Positions 56,781 through 64,000 of a stretch of DNA of 64,000 nucleotides are shown one piece after another. The DNA is taken from positions 558,001 through 622,000 of the forward strand of contig NZ_NOIH01000003.1 of the NCBI RefSeq assembly GCF_002245655.1, read 5' to 3'. A program made the translations under genes and the position numbers. The notes beneath the pieces were generated by a model that was not told the DNA's origin, did not search any database, and was given only the letters and a program-made list of their open reading frames with translations. The DNA is from Thauera propionica. Lineage in GTDB: Bacteria; Pseudomonadota; Gammaproteobacteria; Burkholderiales; Rhodocyclaceae. Every line of letters begins with the position of its first letter. Positions within the stretch are counted from its first letter, which is position 1.

Positions 56781-57170
56781 ATGATCGGAATCTTCCTGAT
56801 AACCCACGGCACGCTCGGCGAATCGCTGATCCAGTGTGCCTGCCACGTGCTCAACAAACGTCCGCCACAGATCGTGCAGCTCGGCCTGTCGGCGCAGGAC
56901 GACCCGCTCGACATCCTGCCGCAGGCGCGGCAGATGCTCGGCTGGGCCGACAGCGGATACGGTGTGCTGGTGATGACCGACATCTACGGCGCCACGCCGT
57001 GCAACGTCGCCGCCAAGCTGATCGAACCCGGCCGCGTCGAGGCAGTCGCCGGCGTCAACCTGCCGATGCTGCTGCGGGTGCTGACCTACCGCGAGCGCGA
57101 CATGGACACGCTGCTCAAGCGCGCGGTATCCGGTGGCTGTGACGGCGTGCTGCACATCGAATCAACCTAG
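56781..57170 (+). CDS. PTS system EIIA component, mannose/fructose (Man) family
   Basis: A 129-residue EIIA-Man domain. The phosphorylated His is in FLITHGTLGESLIQC (residue 9), and the DIYGATPCNVAAKL segment is typical. There is no EIIB or EIIC gene nearby; it is followed after 41 bases by HPr and then EI. This three-gene set is a known betaproteobacterial arrangement in which phosphoryl transfer is used for regulation rather than sugar uptake. Confidence 0.92.
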   Translation: MIGIFLITHGTLGESLIQCACHVLNKRPPQIVQLGLSAQDDPLDILPQARQMLGWADSGYGVLVMTDIYGATPCNVAAKLIEPGRVEAVAGVNLPMLLRVLTYRERDMDTLLKRAVSGGCDGVLHIEST

Positions 57171-57211
57171 GCGCCTCAGAGCGCGCACAAGAACACTGCG
57201 GGGAGCACACC

Positions 57212-57481
57212 ATGCCGAAGGCGGACGCCGAGATCATCAACAAACTGGGCCTGCACGCCCGCGCGTCCGCCAAGCTGACGCAGCTCGCCAGCAGCTTCCC
57301 CTGCGAGGTCTGGCTCGAGCGCAATGGGCGGCGGGTCAACGCCAAGAGCATCATGGGCGTGATGATGCTGGCGGCCGCCCGTGGCAGCACGATCACCATC
57401 GACACGGCCGGCGAAGATGCCGACAAGGCCCTTCAGGCCATCCAGGACCTGATCGCGGACAGGTTCGGCGAGGGAGAATAG
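57212..57481 (+). CDS. ptsH: Phosphocarrier protein HPr
   Basis: An 89-residue HPr. The active His is in NKLGLHARASAKL (residue 16), and the regulatory Ser region is NAKSIMGVMML (Ser 47). Presence of the Ser site raises the question of an HPr kinase (HprK), common in betaproteobacteria but not in this window. It sits between EIIA and EI with short gaps. Confidence 0.95.
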   Translation: MPKADAEIINKLGLHARASAKLTQLASSFPCEVWLERNGRRVNAKSIMGVMMLAAARGSTITIDTAGEDADKALQAIQDLIADRFGEGE

Positions 57482-57483
57482 GC

Positions 57484-59214
57484 ATGACCTTCGCCCTCCA
57501 CGGCCTGCCGGTTTCGCAGGGCATCGCGATCGGCCACGTGCATCTGATCTCGCACGCCCTGCTAGAGGTCAATCACTACCACGTCCAGCCCAGGCACCTG
57601 CCCGACGAGTTGGCCCGCCTTGACGACGCGGTCGCCACCGTGCAGGGCGAGCTGATCGGCCTGAAGGCGGCCGCCACCTCGGGTCAGACGCACAGCGAGG
57701 TCGGCGCCTTCGTCGACCTGCAGCTGATGATGCTCGCCGACCCGCTGCTGATCGACACGGCGCGCAACCTCATCGAGACGCGGCGCTGCAATGCCGAATG
57801 GGCGCTGGTGCAGCAGATGGAGCTCCTGGTCGAGCAGTTCCGCCAGATCGAAGACCCCTACCTGCGCGAGCGCCAGGCCGACGTAGTGCAGGTGGTCGAG
57901 CGCCTGGTCAAGGTGCTTCTGGGCCACCCGGGCCACCTGCCGCCGAAGCGCCGCGACGGGCTGGGCACCATCGTTGTCGCCCACGATCTGTCGCCGGCCG
58001 ACACCATCGGTTTTCGCGATCACAACATCTCGGGCTTCGTCACCGACGTCGGCGGGCCAACCAGCCACACCGCCATCGTCGCCCGCAGCCTGAAGATTCC
58101 CGCGGTCGTCGGCCTGCACCACGTGCGCGACCTGCTCGAGGACGACGAGCTCGTCATCGTCGATGGCACGCGTGGCGTGATCATCGTCGGCCCCGATGAA
58201 CGGATCGTCGAGGAATATCGCCTGCGCCGCAGCGAGCTGGAGATCGAACGCTCCAAGCTCAACCGGCTGCGCGACACCCACGCCACCACGCTCGACGGCG
58301 AGACGATCAACCTGCTCGCCAACATCGAGGGGCCGAAGGACCTGCCGGCTGTGAAAACTGCCAACGCCGACGGCATCGGCCTCTACCGCACCGAGTTCCT
58401 CTTCATCGGCCGCGACACGCTGCCCGACGAGGAAGAGCAGTACGAGGCCTATCGCGCCGTGCTGAAGGCCTTGCCGAACAAGCCGGTCACCATCCGAACA
58501 TTTGATGTCGGCGCGGACAAGGCGCTGGCCGGTGCCCCGGCGCGCGTCGAACCCAACCCGGCCCTGGGGCTGCGTGCGGTGCGCTACTCGCTGGCCGAGC
58601 CGAAGATGTTCCTGACCCAGTTGCGCGCCCTGCTGCGCGCCTCGGCGCACGGCAAGCTGCAGATCATGATCCCGATGCTGGCGCACGCGCAGGAGATCGA
58701 CCAGTGCCTGGCCCTGATCGCCAAGGCCAAGGCCGAGCTGCGTGCCGAGAAACTCAAGTTCGACGAAGCCGTGCAGATCGGCGGCATGATCGAAATCCCC
58801 GCCGCGGCGCTGTCTCTGGGCATGTTCATCCGCCGCCTGTCCTTCCTGTCGATCGGCACCAACGACCTGATCCAGTACACGCTCGCCATTGACCGTTCGG
58901 ACGAAGCCGTCGTGCACCTCTACGACCCGCTGCATCCGGCGGTGCTCAAGCTGATCGGCGCCACGATCGCGACCGGCGCCCGCTACGGCGTGCCGGTCTC
59001 GGTGTGCGGCGAGATGGCGGGCGACCCGAACTACACCCTGCTGCTGCTGGGCATGGGGCTGCGCAACTTCTCGATGCACCCAGGCAACATCCTCGAGATC
59101 AAGCAGCAGGTCCTGCGCGCCGATCTAAGCGACCTGGCACCCAAGGTGCAACGCATCCTGAAGATGGACGAGCCCGCCCGGCTGCGCGAGGCCGTCGAAC
59201 GGCTGTCCACCTGA
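57484..59214 (+). CDS. ptsI: PTS enzyme I (phosphoenolpyruvate-protein phosphotransferase)
   Basis: A 576-residue enzyme I. The phospho-His motif is GGPTSHTAIVARS near residue 196, the PEP-binding barrel has GIGLYRTEFLF, IMIPML and SIGTNDLIQYTLAIDR, and the catalytic Cys is in VSVCGEMAGDP. It takes phosphate from PEP and passes it to HPr, encoded 2 bases upstream. The length is normal. The gene ends 87 bases before the split tRNA-Gly locus. Confidence 0.95.
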   Translation: MTFALHGLPVSQGIAIGHVHLISHALLEVNHYHVQPRHLPDELARLDDAVATVQGELIGLKAAATSGQTHSEVGAFVDLQLMMLADPLLIDTARNLIETRRCNAEWALVQQMELLVEQFRQIEDPYLRERQADVVQVVERLVKVLLGHPGHLPPKRRDGLGTIVVAHDLSPADTIGFRDHNISGFVTDVGGPTSHTAIVARSLKIPAVVGLHHVRDLLEDDELVIVDGTRGVIIVGPDERIVEEYRLRRSELEIERSKLNRLRDTHATTLDGETINLLANIEGPKDLPAVKTANADGIGLYRTEFLFIGRDTLPDEEEQYEAYRAVLKALPNKPVTIRTFDVGADKALAGAPARVEPNPALGLRAVRYSLAEPKMFLTQLRALLRASAHGKLQIMIPMLAHAQEIDQCLALIAKAKAELRAEKLKFDEAVQIGGMIEIPAAALSLGMFIRRLSFLSIGTNDLIQYTLAIDRSDEAVVHLYDPLHPAVLKLIGATIATGARYGVPVSVCGEMAGDPNYTLLLLGMGLRNFSMHPGNILEIKQQVLRADLSDLAPKVQRILKMDEPARLREAVERLST

Positions 59215-59230
59215 AGCCACCAGACCGTCG

Positions 59231-59260
59231 TTGCATTGCCGCCCCCCGCCCCAGTAGAAT
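59231..59260 (+). promoter_or_regulatory. Promoter of the split tRNA-Gly locus
   Basis: TTGCAT (59231) and TAGAAT (59255) are 18 bases apart and would start transcription about 35 bases before the first tRNA-Gly half. It should drive one long transcript through the structured region and the downstream tRNAs. Confidence 0.65.
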
Positions 59261-59301
59261 GGCGGCCTCCATCGCGGTCGCCAGCACGGCAGGCCGCCCT
59301 G

Positions 59302-59341
59302 GCGGGTGTCGTATAATGGCTATTACCTCAGCTTCCCAAGC
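59302..59341 (+). pseudogene. 5' half of tRNA-Gly(CCC), cut in the anticodon stem
   Basis: These 40 bases are identical to the first 40 of the intact tRNA-Gly(CCC) at 60246: acceptor strand GCGGGTG, D arm, and the anticodon arm up to CCCAAGC. The cut falls after the first two bases of the 3' anticodon-stem arm (GC of GCTGA). The rest of the tRNA does not follow; structured sequence starting GTGCG does. It is either the 5' exon of an intron-split tRNA or the host side of an integration event. Confidence 0.88.
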
Positions 59342-60137
59342 GTGCGACTCGAGCCGAGTCGAAGGCTAGCTGTAGCCTCTGTGCCACGCGATCCCATTGC
59401 GGGATCACCACCATTGCGGTGGGCGCACAGAAACTCAGCCTTTCAAAGAGTGCCGTAAGGCACGAAACGGCGAAGGCCGTATAAGTAATTGTTCTGCCCT
59501 TCTCACGAGGGTGACAGGACCCGAGGTTCAGCCCTCGGTAGTCTAGGAGCAGTGCGCCACTGGTAACGGTGGGGTGCTGAGCGCTCTGACAATGTAGCCA
59601 CCTTGCGGGGTACGTCATATCCCGTGAGGGGTCTGGCGTGATTTCGGGAGTTGCACCCGGATGAGGCGCTAGACTGAATTGGATGGTCAACGTAAGTGAA
59701 CCGCCACTAAACGTCGTAAAGCATGAAAGAGCCAAAGGCAACTTGTTACATCGGGCTCTGGCCAAAATGGCACGTGATCGGATGTCTGCTTGCTTGGTGC
59801 AGACACGCTGACGCTAGCATCACCGGCGAAAAGGCGGGACCTTCCCAATTCTGTTACTTGTACGGAACGAGGTAAGCCCAATGCGGTGTCTGGCTCGTAA
59901 AACCAGACTATGTTGTTCGCAAGATCAACAGACGCCGTAGTGGGTAGACGAGGATGGAAAAAGCGAATGCTCCACTGTAACGGGGGGGATAGGGGATGTA
60001 ACGATCGCCCCAACGCGAAAGCGTGCTGACTTCCATCTGGTGACTCTTCGTAAGAAGGGTCTGTATAATCGCAATCCCGACGGGGACGACGCTCATGTCC
60101 CCTCGCGGGATTACTGCGTCTTCTCCTGACGGTCTGA
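59342..60137 (+). ncRNA. Group II intron-like structured RNA inserted in tRNA-Gly (no ORF)
   Basis: About 800 bases without a supported gene but full of hairpins. It begins GTGCG, the group II 5' consensus. Domain I-like folds follow: CGACTCG-AGC-CGAGTCG (59345), AGGCTA-GCTG-TAGCCT (59363), a two-hairpin junction closed by CTGTGC/GCACAG (59379-59430), and GTAA- and GAAG-capped stems at 59450 and 59468. The hairpin GTCTGC...GCAGAC (59784-59804) presents GCTTGG, exactly complementary to the last six exon bases CCAAGC, as EBS1/IBS1. GGAACGAGGTAAGCCC (59864), a 10-bp stem at 59883-59938 and AGGATGGAAAAAGCGAATGC (59951) resemble domains II-III. I cannot place a canonical domain V or VI, so it may be degenerate. 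Confidence 0.6.
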
Positions 60138-60191
60138 GCGGGTGTAGTTCAATGGCAGAACGGCAGCTTCCCAAGCTGCATACGAGGGTTC
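60138..60191 (+). pseudogene. Truncated second tRNA-Gly(CCC)
   Basis: GCGGGTG followed by a GTTC/GAAC D arm and a GCAGC-TTCCCAA-GCTGC anticodon arm reads as a different tRNA-Gly with anticodon CCC. It stops in the T loop (GAGGGTTC) and continues into unrelated sequence, so the acceptor stem cannot close. It is a broken tRNA lying between the structured RNA and the intact tRNA. Confidence 0.82.
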
Positions 60192-60245
60192 TTATTGCAG
60201 CCTGGGCCAGATGCACGTTAGGATGGTCTGAAGTAGTGTCTCAAC

Positions 60246-60317
60246 GCGGGTGTCGTATAATGGCTATTACCTCAGCTTCCCAAGCTGATGACGAGGGTTC
60301 GATTCCCTTCACCCGCT
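60246..60317 (+). tRNA. tRNA-Gly(CCC), intact
   Basis: A complete cloverleaf: acceptor GCGGGTG/CACCCGC, anticodon stem TCAGC/GCTGA around the loop TTCCCAA (anticodon CCC), T arm GAGGG-TTCGATT-CCCTT and discriminator T. The CCA is not encoded. Its first 40 bases duplicate those at 59302. Its 3' part is the integration target, since copies of the GCTGA-to-acceptor half recur at 60589 and 61102. Confidence 0.93.
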
Positions 60318-60356
60318 CATTTCCCTATAGTTTCCCCTCCTTAGCACAAAACTCAC

Positions 60357-60382
60357 CCTTTGTTGCACTTAGCAACTAAAGG
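60357..60382 (+). repeat. Hairpin A of the integrase leader, unit 1
   Basis: CCTTTGTTGC pairs with GCAACTAAAGG with one bulged base and a five-base loop. It lies between CACC and GTCACGT, the same position as in units 2 and 3, although the arm sequence differs. Confidence 0.75.
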
Positions 60383-60588
60383 TCACGTTGGTTAGACTTT
60401 CGCCAGTTGCATCCTTGCCGAAGGTTAGTTGTGCTTAAGAATGTCGCGTTAGTTCTAACAACGCTGGATGGAAATCAGGTGTGGCTGCGGCTCGGCCCAG
60501 ACGACCAACCGGTACGCGCCCTCAGAGTTTTCCCAAGACCCTCGAATGGCGCGCTGTAAGCACCAGAGCCAACTAATGCAGGTGGCTT
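60383..60588 (+). pseudogene. 5' remnant of a tyrosine recombinase gene, unit 1
   Basis: The sequence aligns with the first 210 bases of the intact recombinase gene (61205-61419), including GGCTCGGCCCAGACG and CACCAGAGCCAACTAATGCA, but has frameshifts and stops, for example TAA soon after the start. It breaks off at GCAGGTGGCT, where it is fused to a tRNA-Gly 3' half. It is the left end of an earlier, lost element. Confidence 0.85.
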
Positions 60589-60612
60589 GCTGAATCCATG
60601 CGAGGGTTCGAG
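60577..60612. repeat. 36-base direct repeat, copy 1 (recombinase fragment fused to tRNA 3' half)
   Basis: It is identical to 61090-61125. It joins TGCAGGTGGCT from the recombinase gene to GCTGAATCCATGCGAGGGTT, a degenerate tRNA-Gly 3' half beginning at the anticodon-stem GCTGA. The same junction twice suggests a site-specific crossover point. This tRNA 3' half is itself cut short after GGTTCGAG. Confidence 0.85.
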
Positions 60613-60642
60613 AGTTTCCTCTCCCCAGCACACAACCCACCA

Positions 60643-60662
60643 TTAGTTGATTTTTCGACTAA
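60643..60662 (+). repeat. Hairpin B of the integrase leader, unit 2
   Basis: TTAGTTG pairs with CGACTAA (one T-G wobble) around a six-base loop, again between CACC and GTCACGT. The arms differ from hairpins A and C while pairing is kept. Confidence 0.7.
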
Positions 60663-60797
60663 CTGTCACGTCGGTTAGCCATTCGCCAGTTGAATCCCTG
60701 CGATGGTTACCTGCTCGGCCCTAACGGTCACCCGGCACGCGCCCTCGAAGTTTCCGCTCAGACCCCTGAACAACGTTCTGCAAACACCAGATCCAAC

Positions 60798-61079
60798 GTA
60801 AGCGCCCGGCGAACCCGTCTTGCCGTTTCGCTCAGGTGCAGTCGCTCGGCTGCCAGCGATGGACCTGGTTGGCGTTCAGGCCATTGGCCAGGGCCACGCC
60901 GGCCACCGAGACGCCGGGCTCACGACAGGCCGCGACCACCGACCGCTTGAATGCTTCGCCGTGCGTGCGCCGGGCTCGGCGAGGGATAACGAGGTCCATA
61001 GTGTCCACCATCAAGATTGATGGGCACGATCTTCATTGGGCTAAGCGGCTAGGGGAAGGTGGGTTCGCCGGGTGCTTAC
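60798..61079. mobile_element. 282-bp IS66-derived miniature element
   Basis: Terminal inverted repeats GTAAGCGCCCGGCGAACCC (60798) and its complement ending at 61079 match at 18 of 19 bases and have the GTAAG end of IS66. The flanks GATCCAAC and GATCCAC (one base lost) fit the 8-base target duplication of that family; comparison with the intact recombinase gene confirms the uninterrupted target. It carries only an internal fragment of the IS66 accessory gene, so it could move only in trans. Confidence 0.82.
60832..61014 (-). pseudogene. IS66 TnpA (OrfA) N-terminal fragment
   Basis: A 60-codon frame reading MDLVIPRRARRTHGEAFKRS and VSVAGVALANGLNANQVHRW, the helix-turn-helix of the IS66 accessory protein TnpA. 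It stops at QPSDCT soon after the helix-turn-helix, so the rest of TnpA, TnpB and TnpC are missing. It is cargo of the miniature element. Confidence 0.78.
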
Positions 61080-61089
61080 GATCCACTAC

Positions 61090-61140
61090 TGCAGGTGGCT
61101 TGCTGAATCCATGCGAGGGTTCGAGCCCCTTCATCCGCTC
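61090..61140. repeat. 36-base direct repeat copy 2 and tRNA-Gly 3'-half attachment copy, unit 3
   Basis: 61090-61125 is identical to 60577-60612. From GCTGA (61102) it continues ATCCATGCGAGGGTTCGAGC and CCCTTCATCCGCT, a diverged copy of the tRNA-Gly 3' half down to the acceptor end. It opens the third unit, which carries the intact recombinase gene, and is the probable attachment site of the present island. Confidence 0.8.
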
Positions 61141-61178
61141 GCTTCCGTAGAGTTTCCCCGTCCCCAGTGCACAAGCCA

Positions 61179-61205
61179 CCATTATTCGCATTTTGCGAAT
61201 AATGG
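61179..61205 (+). promoter_or_regulatory. Hairpin C over the start codon of the recombinase gene
   Basis: CCATTATTCGC pairs perfectly with GCGAATAATGG (11 bp) around an ATTTT loop. The ATG at 61202-61204 lies in the 3' arm, so the folded RNA would hide the start. GTCACGT follows directly, as in the two dead copies. Confidence 0.75.
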
Positions 61206-62656
61206 TCACGTCATTTAGCCTATCGCCAATTGAATCCTTGCAATGGTTAGCTGTGTTAAAAAATGTCTCGTTAGTTCAAACAACGCTGCATGGAAAACAA
61301 TCGTGGCGGCTGCTCGGCCCAGACGGCCACCCGATACGCGCCTTTGACGTTTTTGCTCGGACACTCGAGCGACGCTCTGTAAACACCAGGGCCAACTACT
61401 GCAGGTGGCTAGCCGAATTCTTCGACTATTTGTTCGAAGCCTCGATTTGGACACCGACTGGGCAAAATGGCAGTGCGAGCCATGAAACTTTGCTGGAGGT
61501 GCTTGAAGCCTACGACGAGTACTTGGTGCTTGGGGCCAATTCAGGTAACGCCATCGCACGCAGCATTGACGAGACCCTACCCTCTCCACACATCTCTAGA
61601 AGGTCCTCCGCTACCAAGCATGCCGCGGTTAGGAAGTTCCTGAAGCTCTCTGAGCGAGTTCGCGCGCAGATGTTGGAGCTGACCAAGGCCGGCGCTGGGT
61701 CTGCCATCATAGACGAGCAAAACCTGCTCGTTGGCATCGGTGACAAGCACGAAATTCCCCCGTTTCAACGCCGTGCGCTAATCACTAACTCAATGTTGGC
61801 CGGCGTTATTGCCAGGGGGCCCAAGCTGATTGAAGAAAGCGTTCTGCCTACCACCGTTCCTGACATAACTTACGAGCACGAACGAGCATTCCCATTTGAC
61901 AAGGTAGGCGACGTCTTAAGTCACCTCAAAACCTACCGGGATAAGGCCCTATACGCCCTTTGCGCTGCAAGCGGCTGCCGTATAAGCGAAGCATTGCAGC
62001 TTCTATGGGACGACCTCGACACGAAGGCCCAAGCAGTGCGGCTGGTGGCCCCCAAGAGCCGGCCAAGCTGTCGGTCCTATCTAGCACTCGACCCCGAGGA
62101 GCGGGACCTTCTCGTATGGAAAGGCAGGGCGACGCCGGTGACCCTGCTCATCGAGCCGTTTGCGACAATGTTTTTTGAGGCGCTGGCTGCATACATGCGC
62201 TACGAGTACCTCCCCCACGCCCGGCACGGCTTCGTCTTCCAATACACGCGAGGCGGCGAACAGGGGCGACCTTATTTCCTTGCCGCTGCTTCCTCTAGAA
62301 ACGGGGTGTTGAATAGGGCCATCAAGCTTGCCGGCGTTGAGCACGTAGAGGGGCCACATTCACTGCGGCACATGTACGGGACGTATCTCTTGAACTACTT
62401 CCCGCGGCTAGACGGCACGTACGGACTTCCGATTGGTATCGTACAGAAGCTCATGGGACATCGTCAGGCGAAGGACACGGCTAAGTACGCTCGTTACGAC
62501 AGAGACCTGCTGGAGGCCGAACTGAAGTACGCGAACATGATGCTGTTCGGCAACGGCAAAGTGCGCTCAGTCAATGAACTCAAACGTGCGGCCTTGTTGT
62601 CTCGACTCGCCGAGGTGGAAGCTCAGTTGGAAGAGAACGAAAGTCAAGCAGCATGA
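61193..62656 (+). CDS. Tyrosine recombinase of a tRNA-Gly-associated genomic island
   Basis: A 487-residue site-specific recombinase. A SAM-like core-binding domain (SVNTRANYCRWLAEFFDYLF, about residues 60-160) precedes the catalytic domain with Arg in GCRISEALQLLW (about 263), HSLRH (386-390), His in MGHRQAK (423) and the nucleophile Tyr in TAKYARYD (about 432). Numbering is from a TTG at 61193; the ATG at 61202 is the better start but sits in a hairpin and lacks a ribosome-binding site. Base composition is well below the neighbours. The stop overlaps the next gene by 4 bases. Two dead copies of its 5' end lie upstream. A gamma-mobile-trio GmtY-type role is possible but unproved. Confidence 0.88.
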   Translation: MRIMVTSFSLSPIESLQWLAVLKNVSLVQTTLHGKQSWRLLGPDGHPIRAFDVFARTLERRSVNTRANYCRWLAEFFDYLFEASIWTPTGQNGSASHETLLEVLEAYDEYLVLGANSGNAIARSIDETLPSPHISRRSSATKHAAVRKFLKLSERVRAQMLELTKAGAGSAIIDEQNLLVGIGDKHEIPPFQRRALITNSMLAGVIARGPKLIEESVLPTTVPDITYEHERAFPFDKVGDVLSHLKTYRDKALYALCAASGCRISEALQLLWDDLDTKAQAVRLVAPKSRPSCRSYLALDPEERDLLVWKGRATPVTLLIEPFATMFFEALAAYMRYEYLPHARHGFVFQYTRGGEQGRPYFLAAASSRNGVLNRAIKLAGVEHVEGPHSLRHMYGTYLLNYFPRLDGTYGLPIGIVQKLMGHRQAKDTAKYARYDRDLLEAELKYANMMLFGNGKVRSVNELKRAALLSRLAEVEAQLEENESQAA

Positions 62657-64000
62657 TTAACACGACGAAGAGCGAACTCGTTTTTCTCCAAACTGGTGAG
62701 GAACTGCACAAAAGTGTTGTGGCAGCCCTCAGCGATGCCAGTAAGTGGGTGCTACAAGCGTATGAACTCCAAGACCTCGACCTATCCGCGGTTACGACGA
62801 AGAGCCACCTCGAGGCCGCACTGCCAGCGCATATTGAGAGATTCATACTGCGAGAAGGTGGAGCGCACTTCGACGAACAGTATGTGAGGGACGTCTTCGC
62901 CTTCGTCAGCACCAACGTTGGCCATTGCTCGCCCAATCTGTACGCAGCGGTGACGCGAAGCCCGTTCGTGACGAGTAGCGGCAAGAGCGTGTATCGCAAA
63001 TCGTACCTTCCGCCGCTGCGCAGGGGCTTTTCAACCTTCCTGATTGCTTTGCACATCCGCCGGGCGATAGTCCTGCCATTCTCGTTTCAATGGCCGCGGG
63101 GTTTGGACCTCGGCTACAAAGGCGCCACTGTCGGGAAGCGTGAGTTATGCCCGCTAGAGCACTTGCCTGAACTGTTGCGGTTTATTCGTTCATTGGACTA
63201 CCGCGAGGGTGCGCAGCAGACCGAAGATGTGTTCAACACCTACAACTCGAAACAGCGCGAGCGCCTTGTCTGGATGAGTCAGCGGCTCATTATCGCTGGA
63301 GGGTGGCTTGAGCCAGCCGACGTCAACTACGAAGACATGCTGGCGCTAAAGGCCTCCAACGACGAAACGGAGTTCTCCGGCCACAGTGACCTTGGCATGC
63401 TGCTGCTTGCCGACCTGCTAGAGCGCAAATACGGCGATGCTTCGCCAGTGAATGCCGCGGGCTGGCGCGCGGTACTCGTGAACACGCGACCGACGAGAAT
63501 GCTTGAGGGTGTCGGAAGCGCGCTCGGCAAGGGAAACGCCAACCTCGTCGAGCAAGCAGCCGCGCTAAGCCCTGCTGCCATGGCACCGGAGGCGTTGGCG
63601 AGGGTGGAACGGCTTCCCGGGTTGGAGTTCAACCTGAAGGCGAACGCAGAAACCTGGATTGGCATAGAACGCACGTTCCTGCGCAAGGTTCGGATGGAGA
63701 ACAAGAGACAGCGTACTGCTGCTCTCGGATACCTGAACATCTACCTCTTCGGTTACCTCCCTTACTGGTATGCCGAAAACCCAGATTTTGAGTATGAGTT
63801 TCCTTCGATGCCAGCAAAGCTAACATCGGCGGTCTTTGTTTCTGATTTGGGGTTGCTCGATGGTAATTTGCGGCCGATGTCCTTTGTTGATTTCCTTGAC
63901 TCAGTCGCTCGAATCCGAGGATGGGGCGCTAGTACCCATTACGGTTTCCTCAAGCAAGTCGCGCAACTGTTCGCATTTATTGAGCGGTACAGCGATTCCT
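62653..64000 (+). CDS. Long island protein coupled to the recombinase, 3' end outside window
   Basis: An open frame of at least 449 codons starting MINTTKSELVFLQTGEELHK runs to the window edge without a stop. Its ATG overlaps the recombinase TGA by 4 bases (ATGA), so the pair is translationally coupled. I recognise no domain in the visible part; segments such as GFSTFLIALHIRRAIVLPFS, YLNIYLFGYLPYWY and ARIRGWGASTHYGFLKQVAQ suggest a folded, partly helical protein, and the last one resembles the entry to a core-binding domain. In multi-recombinase modules such as gamma-mobile-trio islands a large second integrase follows the first, which would fit. Composition is low in GC like the recombinase. 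Confidence 0.8.
   Translation, partial: MINTTKSELVFLQTGEELHKSVVAALSDASKWVLQAYELQDLDLSAVTTKSHLEAALPAHIERFILREGGAHFDEQYVRDVFAFVSTNVGHCSPNLYAAVTRSPFVTSSGKSVYRKSYLPPLRRGFSTFLIALHIRRAIVLPFSFQWPRGLDLGYKGATVGKRELCPLEHLPELLRFIRSLDYREGAQQTEDVFNTYNSKQRERLVWMSQRLIIAGGWLEPADVNYEDMLALKASNDETEFSGHSDLGMLLLADLLERKYGDASPVNAAGWRAVLVNTRPTRMLEGVGSALGKGNANLVEQAAALSPAAMAPEALARVERLPGLEFNLKANAETWIGIERTFLRKVRMENKRQRTAALGYLNIYLFGYLPYWYAENPDFEYEFPSMPAKLTSAVFVSDLGLLDGNLRPMSFVDFLDSVARIRGWGASTHYGFLKQVAQLFAFIERYSDS

What the first reader, a model, noticed from the sequence alone, without database searches (positions are those of the whole stretch)
59302..60137. A tRNA-Gly gene split in the anticodon stem by an ORF-less, group II intron-like RNA
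The tRNA half ends CCCAAGC and the next base starts GTGCG, the group II 5' consensus. A hairpin loop 450 bases in (59792-59797, GCTTGG) is exactly complementary to the six exon bases before the junction, as EBS1/IBS1 would be. Blocks resembling domain II (59883-59938) and domain III (AGGATGGAAAAAGCGAATGC at 59951) follow in the right order, with several GNRA-type loops. Group II introns in bacterial tRNA genes are, to my knowledge, rare. Against it: no canonical 34-nt domain V or branch-point domain VI was found, and no matching tRNA 3' half follows directly. It may be a degenerate intron, a new class of large structured RNA, or a trans-assisted intron.
Basis: partly seen in the sequence, partly recalled or inferred. 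Interest (0 to 1): 0.88.

Follow-up and report, generated by a model that had tools for sequence, protein, structure and literature searches.

The report
Mobile intron carrying its replacement tRNA
A self-splicing mobile intron has cut a bacterial glycine tRNA gene in two, and nearly all its examined relatives carry a complete spare copy of that same tRNA, which looks like a natural way for a genetic parasite to make good the damage it does.

Summary
Window 59302-59341 is the 5' half of tRNA-Gly(CCC). From 59342 runs a true group II intron (Rfam group-II-D1D4-7, 107 bits). Its "missing" end lies 24 kb downstream, beyond the window: an intact reverse transcriptase/maturase/HNH gene, domains V-VI (65.5 bits) and the tRNA 3' half. 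Joined in silico, the halves equal the uninterrupted tRNA of four congeners base for base.

In 39 relatives complete to the 3' exon the intron is 2.0-3.4 kb. Between domain III and the maturase gene 58 of 61 testable loci carry a second, complete tRNA-Gly(CCC), against 0 of 32 related introns not found in tRNA-Gly. The carried copy is the only tRNA-like CCC match in 29 genomes. In the window this copy is itself split by a 21.7-kb integrative element that brings yet another complete tRNA-Gly (60246-60318).

Best reading: a retrohoming lineage specialised for tRNA-Gly(CCC) that carries a substitute for the gene it interrupts, usually altered at the homing site. Anatomy is shown; substitution is inferred. 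A group II intron in a bacterial tRNA was known (TeI4h); I found none described with a tRNA aboard.

The parts
59302..59341 (+). 5' half (40 nt) of the host tRNA-Gly(CCC), = 5' exon; last six bases CCAAGC = IBS1. The 3' half lies beyond the window end, at G000:C23:641706-641740 (window coordinate = contig coordinate minus 558000)
   Evidence: Identical to positions 1-40 of the uninterrupted tRNA of 4 congeners; one difference in a fifth.
59342..60137 (+). Group II intron, 5' portion: 5' splice site GTGCG (59342-59346), domain I, II, III and the start of domain IV. The rest of the intron lies beyond the window end: maturase gene at G000:C23:639938-641611 (557 aa, RVT_N + RVT_1 + GIIM + HNH), domains V-VI at 641631-641705
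   Evidence: Rfam RF02012 at 59520-59668, 107.3 bits; blastn at E 1e-20 or better to 65 of the 74 relatives. Distal parts: RF00029 65.5 bits, Pfam, reading.
59520..59668 (+). Rfam-matched core (group-II-D1D4-7)
   Evidence: E 1.5e-22, model positions 1-151 of 151.
59792..59797 (+). EBS1 loop GCTTGG, complementary to IBS1 CCAAGC
   Evidence: present in 60 of 63 relatives; a relative outside tRNA (G028) has exon CCAGCT and loop AGCTGG instead.
60138..60191 (+). 5' part of the intron-borne (carried) tRNA-Gly(CCC), broken in the T loop after GGTTC by the integrative element
   Evidence: partial tRNA match at 60138-60199, 29.5 bits; its 3' part is at G000:C23:639896-639920.
60192..64000 (+). Left part of an integrative element of about 21.7 kb inserted in the carried tRNA; it runs on beyond the window end to G000:C23:639900
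   Evidence: Left and right breaks both show GGTTC. Without it the intron would be about 2.66 kb, within the 2.0-3.4 kb of the 39 complete relatives.
60246..60318 (+). Complete tRNA-Gly(CCC) near the left end of the integrative element; the only intact CCC tRNA found in this genome
   Evidence: 61.3 bits; sole match of the CCC pattern in G000.
61193..62656 (+). Tyrosine recombinase (487 aa), probable integrase of the element
   Evidence: Pfam PF00589, E 1.1e-16.
57133..59214 (+). Upstream host gene ptsI (the ORF as listed also reads through sequence before ptsI); its end is the upstream neighbour of the uninterrupted tRNA in 5 intron-less congeners

Best explanation
This is one member of a lineage of retrohoming group II introns, with a maturase akin to that of group IIB introns, specialised for the tRNA-Gly(CCC) gene of Pseudomonadota. 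The RNA recognises the anticodon arm through EBS1/IBS1, splices with its maturase and leaves an intact tRNA. The intron also carries, in domain IV just ahead of the maturase start codon, a complete second tRNA-Gly(CCC), which supplies the tRNA while splicing is slow, failing or lost. The carried copy usually differs from the homing site, so the element does not usually offer itself as a target. In this genome an integrative element has inserted into the carried tRNA, split the intron in domain IV and brought a third tRNA-Gly(CCC), which is now the only intact one found. Shown: anatomy, empty site, conservation, sole-copy status by pattern search. Inferred: splicing, expression, the rescue role, homing and homing resistance.
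For: Group II identity: RF02012 107.3 bits, RF00029 65.5 bits, full maturase with HNH, a domain V hairpin and an A at -7 in 40 of 40 complete introns including this one. Precise insertion: in the 5 intron-less congeners examined (of 19 listed) the halves are adjacent behind the same ptsI gene. Carried tRNA: 58 of 61 loci with at least 1,100 nt downstream; of the three misses L117 has it with an assembly gap, L139 and L149 are deleted or truncated introns. Association: 18 of 20 introns in tRNA-Gly against 0 of 32 others, Fisher p 4e-12. Selection on the carried tRNA: 35 distinct sequences, 721 of 735 stem cells paired, 8 positions with two-sided changes, 500 shuffles reach at most 0.872 against 0.981; CCA encoded in 58 of 58. 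Sole copy: in 16 of 18 family genomes and 13 further named genomes the only tRNA-like CCC match is the carried one. Retention: in genome G864 the intron is a fossil but its carried tRNA is intact and the sole tRNA-like CCC match; in L171 most of the intron is gone and the carried tRNA is kept. Selection on the split tRNA: joined halves 514 of 525 stem cells paired, 9 positions with two-sided changes. Homing-site change: AGCTTCCCAAGCT in 104 of 116 other CCC tRNAs (G864 left out) but 4 of 58 carried ones. Maturase tree: tRNA-Gly introns (48) and others (13) lie on two sides of one branch, 100/100.
Against: No RNA or protein data: splicing, expression of the carried tRNA and mobility are untested. 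The joined host halves are still well paired, so splicing alone might suffice. tRNA-Gly(CCC) is probably dispensable where tRNA-Gly(UCC) reads GGG (recalled), which weakens the need for rescue. 3 of the 35 distinct carried tRNAs keep the 13-nt homing core, 29 of 38 carried arms keep the six IBS1 bases, and the broken copy in the window keeps the whole core, so homing resistance is not universal. G215 has an intron without the carried tRNA and no intact CCC gene was found, which fits splicing as the sole source there. Exons must match the target by ascertainment; related sequences are not independent, so p values overstate; of the 117 'other' CCC tRNAs only the 13 exceptions were examined for intron flanks. 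Of the 32 controls, L010 has only 5 nt upstream, so its site is unknown, and four have under 500 nt downstream. The CCC pattern requires TTCCCAA and GGTTCGA and could miss divergent genes. 9 of 40 joined anticodon stems have a mismatch among the three pairs that span the junction.
Confidence: 0.72

Rival explanations
1. The carried tRNA serves the intron rather than the host: RNase P and RNase Z cut at the tRNA and free the maturase mRNA and turn the intron into two pieces that splice in trans through domain IV.
For: A maturase start motif lies 14-20 nt after the tRNA in 49 of 58 loci, 17 nt in 30 of them; a Shine-Dalgarno-like GGAG/GAGG follows the tRNA in 51 of 58; nearly all natural trans-splicing group II introns are split in domain IV (PMC4424553, passage).
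Against: Any tRNA would do for processing, yet only tRNA-Gly(CCC) was found, matching the interrupted gene, and 0 of 32 related introns elsewhere carry one. The tRNA outlives the intron in G864 and L171.
Confidence: 0.15
2. Passive capture: one ancestor picked up the host tRNA by recombination and the lineage simply inherited it; the host depends on it only because it lost alternatives.
For: The tRNA-inserted introns lie on one side of a 100/100 branch, so capture could have happened once.
Against: 35 distinct carried sequences with compensatory changes show upkeep, not decay; only 4 of 58 keep the homing core against 104 of 116 others.
Confidence: 0.1
3. In this genome the intron is dead: the 21.7-kb element abolished splicing and the third tRNA-Gly, brought by the element, does all the work. 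(Concerns this copy only and is compatible with the best explanation for the lineage.)
For: The element separates domains I-III from the maturase gene and domains V-VI; the element's tRNA is the sole intact CCC match.
Against: Both exon halves, the matched 5' ribozyme part, the maturase frame and domains V-VI are present, and domain IV is where natural split introns are cut. The insertion may merely be recent.
Confidence: 0.6
4. Not an intron: a chance resemblance of a tRNA fragment next to structured RNA.
For: No domain V or 3' half within the window.
Confidence: 0.01

Closest known systems
TeI4h, group IIB1 intron of Thermosynechococcus elongatus in the single tRNA-Ile(CAU) gene (PMC2882425; passages read)
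   Same: Group II retroelement inserted in a single-copy bacterial tRNA gene with good EBS/IBS pairing and a continuous ORF. The closest solved maturase, 6me0_C (562 aa), aligns over residues 13-543 of 557; that 6me0 comes from a T. elongatus intron is recalled.
   Different: tRNA-Ile, one genome; no carried tRNA mentioned in the passages read; the authors suggest that splicing restores the tRNA. Here one lineage recurs at one site in tRNA-Gly(CCC) and carries a second copy.
Group I introns in bacterial tRNA genes
   Same: Self-splicing introns in bacterial tRNA genes (examples in passages of PMC4390854; PMC4853749; PMC3073962).
   Different: Different ribozyme class; no replacement tRNA aboard in those passages.
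Integrative elements that insert at tRNA 3' ends and restore the tRNA end (recalled)
   Same: A tRNA-targeting mobile element that compensates for the gene it hits.
   Different: They restore only the 3' end by site-specific recombination. The intron cuts the anticodon stem, should restore the gene by splicing, and carries a full extra copy. Such elements also sit in the carried tRNA (window; L134 and L143).
Intron-encoded tRNAs of fungal mitochondria (PMC7902536; one figure legend seen)
   Same: tRNA genes located within introns.
   Different: The legend places them under the genes whose introns hold them; it names neither the intron class nor any match between the tRNA and the interrupted gene.
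Laboratory 'home-and-rescue' gene drives (recalled)
   Same: A homing element that carries a recoded copy of the gene it disrupts.
   Different: Engineered, protein-coding targets; here a natural tRNA gene and an RNA-guided retroelement. Analogy only.

Membership tests
Group II intron (ribozyme) | 5' end GUGYG | tested here: met
   GTGCG at 59342; GTGCG or GCGCG in 74 of 78 loci.
Group II intron (ribozyme) | Domain I-IV core matched by a covariance model | tested here: met
   RF02012, 107.3 bits, cut-off 34.
Group II intron (ribozyme) | Catalytic domain V and domain VI with bulged A | tested here: met
   RF00029, 65.5 bits, cut-off 40, 24 kb downstream; A at -7 in 40 of 40 complete introns. 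That this A is bulged and the branch point is inferred.
Group II intron (ribozyme) | 3' end AY | tested here: inconclusive
   Predicted ends: CC in 23, AC in 16 and CG in one (this copy) of 40; a 3' splice site shifted by a base or two is not excluded.
Group II intron (ribozyme) | EBS1-IBS1 pairing | tested here: met
   GCTTGG/CCAAGC; a covarying pair in G028. Most of the other non-tRNA introns gave no clear 5' end, so this is one example, not a statistic.
Group II intron (ribozyme) | Self-splicing or maturase-assisted splicing | not testable with these tools
   Needs RNA.
Mobile group II retroelement with maturase | RT, maturase and endonuclease domains in one ORF in domain IV | tested here: met
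   RVT_N, RVT_1, GIIM, HNH in 557 aa; TIGR04416 371 bits, cut-off 300; ORF lies between the domain I-IV match and domain V.
Mobile group II retroelement with maturase | Retrohoming into the empty site | not testable with these tools
   Present in 3 of the 22 genomes of the genus listed, with empty sites in the 5 examined; loss would look the same.
ROOL/GOLLD or another class of large ornate RNA | Covariance-model match | tested here: not met
   No such family among the 7 matches listed at E up to 5 for 57000-64000.

The most novel reading that the evidence does not exclude
A natural home-and-rescue element: a mobile intron lineage that targets one tRNA gene and carries its own, homing-site-altered copy of that gene, so that the host is supplied with the tRNA whether or not splicing works, and in time the host may come to depend on the intron's tRNA (as G864 and L171 suggest). 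Mobile introns would then be a route by which bacteria exchange a tRNA gene horizontally.
Probability: 0.55. Interest if true: 0.92.

Novelty: new variant of a known kind. Interest (0 to 1): 0.87.

Why it matters
Group II introns are held to limit harm to the host by splicing out. Here a second, separate safeguard seems to ride along: a spare copy of the gene that is cut. It makes testable how a ribozyme splices a tRNA whose halves fold and are processed fast, whether tRNA processing inside domain IV is compatible with splicing (perhaps in trans), and whether mobile introns replace host tRNA genes. It may also explain genomes where tRNA-Gly(CCC) seems missing or sits inside an intron, and it shows integrative elements lying in intron-borne tRNAs.

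Tried and rejected
Degenerate or ORF-less intron: rejected, domains V-VI and the maturase frame are present beyond the element. New large RNA class: nothing other than group II and tRNA above cut-off. Phage origin: blastn of the intron against the phage collection, no match. Plasmid collection: 405 records matched, 30 listed; among those one 2.8-kb P. aeruginosa record covers 33% of the query, 21 are tRNA-Gly matches, and the 8 Acinetobacter rows match 11% of the query at 76% in the later intron part; the rest were not seen. Decay of the host halves: the mismatch of five exon pairs (stem GCA with TTC: L099, L107, L108, L111, L144) also occurs in uninterrupted tRNAs of 2 of 100 genomes, so it is no sign of decay; the other four mismatches (L110, L125, L157, L172) were not followed up. 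Loss of the intron's 3' part by tRNA-tRNA recombination: considered for L103, L134, L143, L160 and L168. L134 and L143 have an integrase gene right after the carried tRNA (Pfam PF00589); L168 starts a near-identical frame with masked stretches (by eye); L103 is too short to tell; only L160 (Thauera terpenica; no RF00029 match in genome G250) may be a deletion. The frame tested after the L171 tRNA has no Pfam match. EBS1 covariation across the non-tRNA introns: mostly not readable because their 5' ends were not found. First maturase tree held one spurious long-branch row, L077; rebuilt without it. A wrong gap length in my pattern gave 0 of 150 genomes, own genome included; corrected.

Literature: ten searches, (open-licence PMC only); the listings were cut to 20-25 of 30, 32 and 320 papers. 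I read passages only, never whole papers.

Rows dropped before counts: of 78 loci, L102, L158, L173 and L175 do not begin GTGCG/GCGCG; 13 of the remaining 74 have under 1,100 nt. In one search, 35 of 75 items gave no 3' end (contig end, inserted element or script limit). In one search all 52 listed loci were kept, although L010 has 5 nt upstream and L004, L028, L187 and L195 have under 500 nt downstream; without these five the control is 0 of 27. Short maturases, and frames without the searched RT active-site motif, were left out of the tree.

Full report
1. What is in the window. The ptsI gene (within the ORF 57133-59214) is followed by the first 40 nt of a tRNA-Gly(CCC) at 59302-59341 and then, without a spacer, GTGCG. 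Rfam's group-II-D1D4-7 model matches 59520-59668 over its full length with 107.3 bits against a cut-off of 34; it is the only such match in the genome. The EBS1 candidate GCTTGG at 59792-59797 is exactly complementary to the last six exon bases and recurs 411-527 nt from the 5' splice site in 60 of 63 relatives with at least 600 nt. In one related intron outside tRNA (G028) exon CCAGCT faces loop AGCTGG, a covarying pair.

2. The missing end. The window is G000:C23:558001-622000. The genome's only domain V-VI match (RF00029, 65.5 bits; limit E 1) is at 641629-641706, on the same strand 24 kb downstream. Read directly, that stretch holds a 35-nt domain V, a domain VI with an A at position -7, and then the tRNA 3' half with CCA. 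Just upstream is an intact 557-aa ORF (639938-641611) with RVT_N, RVT_1, maturase and HNH domains, TIGR04416 at 371 bits, and best solved relative 6me0_C at 606.9 bits. The joined halves are identical to the uninterrupted 75-nt tRNA of 4 congeners and differ by one base from a fifth; in all five the same ptsI end lies upstream.

3. The intron in relatives. RF02012 is found in 28 of 395 genomes of the family and 15 of 398 drawn from the phylum, the window's genome counted in both. A scan of one genome per species for the tRNA-Gly 5' half joined to the intron start gave 78 loci, 74 of them beginning GTGCG/GCGCG. By their record titles they include Rubrivivax, Piscinibacter, Massilia, Duganella, Azonexus, Gallionella, Sideroxydans, Solimonas, Rhodanobacter, Halomonas, Marinobacterium and Methylocaldum, besides many MAGs; one maturase from a MAG labelled Planctomycetota sits at zero length beside a proteobacterial row and may be a binning error. 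Forty introns, this one included, were complete to the 3' exon; the 39 relatives run from 2,036 to 3,395 nt.

4. The carried tRNA. Between domain III and the maturase gene, 58 of 61 loci with at least 1,100 nt downstream carry a complete tRNA-Gly(CCC) on the same strand. Of the three misses, L117 has the tRNA interrupted by an assembly gap, L139 is an intron without ORF or tRNA, and L149 is truncated by other sequence. A maturase start motif lies 14-20 nt after the tRNA in 49 of 58, with a ribosome-binding-like motif in 51 of 58. As a control I took all 52 RF02012 matches listed: 18 of 20 in tRNA-Gly carry a tRNA (the two misses are the deleted G215 intron and a contig end), and 0 of 32 others do (Fisher p 4e-12). 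Of those 32, one has too little sequence upstream to tell its site and four too little downstream; without these five it is 0 of 27.

5. It looks functional. The 58 carried tRNAs comprise 35 distinct sequences; 721 of 735 stem cells form standard pairs, eight positions show two-sided changes, and 500 shuffles reach 0.872 at most against 0.981. All 58 encode CCA. With the pattern TTCCCAA...GGTTCGA I looked for other CCC genes. In 16 of the 18 intron-bearing family genomes other than the window's own that were searched, the only tRNA-like match is the carried one; G140 has no match and G215 only a chance-like one. Among the named genomes it is again the carried one in 13 (strings checked); L116 was not verified, L149 has its match on another contig, L166 has none, and L123, L160 and L167 repeat family genomes. 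Some genomes have further matches that do not look like tRNA. In the window's genome the only match is the copy brought by the integrative element. In genome G864 nothing is left but the leader, the carried tRNA and the first codons of the maturase, yet the tRNA is intact and the sole tRNA-like match. In Ectothiorhodospira shaposhnikovii DSM 243 (L171) most of the intron is gone and the carried tRNA remains, again the sole match.

6. The split tRNA is kept too. In 25 distinct joined exon pairs 514 of 525 stem cells pair, with nine positions changed on both sides; the acceptor pair varies as TG/CA and CG/CG together. At the three anticodon-stem pairs that span the junction 31 of 40 are perfect complements; five of the nine exceptions share a mismatch that also occurs in uninterrupted genes. 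So splicing is probably still under selection, and the carried tRNA is an addition to it, not simply a substitute after failure.

7. Homing site. The carried anticodon arm is never (0 of 38) identical to that of its own exons; the first 3' exon base is T in 36 of 38 exons and in 5 of 38 carried copies. The 13-nt core AGCTTCCCAAGCT is present in 104 of 116 other CCC tRNAs of the order (117 rows, counted by reading them; the fossil G864 left out) but in only 4 of 58 carried ones. The 13 exceptions were checked for intron flanks: only G864 has them. This suggests resistance to self-insertion. Against it: 29 of 38 carried arms keep the six IBS1 bases, and the window's own broken copy keeps the whole core.

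8. Descent. In a maturase tree of 61 rows (59 different) the 48 tRNA-Gly introns and the 13 others lie on the two sides of one branch with 100/100 support. Several host families cluster within the tRNA-Gly side (Gallionellaceae, Sphaerotilaceae, Rhodanobacteraceae), so part of the spread is within families; congeners without the intron show gain or loss.

9. The window's own twist. The carried tRNA runs from 60138 to 60191 and breaks in the T loop; its 3' end reappears at contig position 639896. Between them lie about 21.7 kb with a tyrosine recombinase, a complete tRNA-Gly(CCC) at 60246-60318, a RecD2-like helicase and weak restriction and methylase matches. L134 and L143 have integrase genes directly after their carried tRNA and L168 the start of a similar frame, so carried tRNAs seem to be recurrent landing sites. 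Whether the split intron of this strain still splices, in cis over 24 kb or in trans, cannot be told from sequence.

10. Known and new. A group II intron in a bacterial tRNA gene is not new as such: TeI4h lies in the single tRNA-Ile(CAU) gene of T. elongatus and is thought to splice (PMC2882425, passages). A 2015 review names three known target specificities of bacterial group II introns: homing sites, terminator motifs and attC (PMC4424553, passage). I found no description of a group II intron that carries a copy of the tRNA it interrupts in the ten searches of open-licence papers listed under Tried and rejected; closed literature was not searched. The closest phrase found, 'intron-encoded tRNAs' in fungal mitochondria (PMC7902536, one figure legend), does not name the intron class. 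I therefore rate this a new variant of a known kind, with a mechanism (rescue cargo) that is well supported by pattern and untested by experiment.

Noticed in passing
L175 (Candidatus Endomicrobium MAG), minus strand, match at 840-881: A different insert of about 340 bp with terminal inverted repeats interrupts tRNA-Gly(CCC) at the same place and also contains a complete tRNA-Gly(CCC); no Rfam intron family matched at E up to 1. Possibly a convergent case.
   Followed up: partly
L139 / G215:C231: An intron without ORF and tRNA ends in domains V-VI and is followed at once by the start of a second intron copy (GTGCGACGCG...), then the contig ends: a tandem intron or an assembly artefact.
   Followed up: partly
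L176 (CP075775.1, 2,837-bp circular record called a plasmid of Pseudomonas aeruginosa): The only annotated gene is a group II intron maturase and the intron's core matches this one; perhaps an excised circle or an assembly artefact rather than a plasmid.
   Followed up: partly
L200 (G234, congener): Two CCC tRNA matches lie 10.8 kb apart, the second with the same 3' half only, as another integrative element at this tRNA would leave.
   Followed up: no
L065 / L160 (Thauera terpenica): The 5' half is of another tRNA-Gly type (TAGTTCAATGGCAGAAC) than in its congeners (TCGTATAATGGCTATTACC), and no domain V-VI match was found in the genome.
   Followed up: partly
G400:C1:3417928 and 3420096: Two RF02012 matches with equal scores 2.2 kb apart on one strand: tandem group II introns not in tRNA-Gly.
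   Followed up: no
L102 and L158 (MAGs titled Hyphomicrobiales and Xanthobacteraceae): tRNA-Gly(CCC) is cut off at the same base by unrelated sequence (GTGCAC..., GTGAAA...); perhaps other elements using the same site.
   Followed up: no
L032 and L033 1-3895 (integrative element): The element carries a RecD2-like helicase, a ResIII-domain protein and a partial N6-methylase match; five of the eight ORFs tested have no Pfam match.
   Followed up: partly
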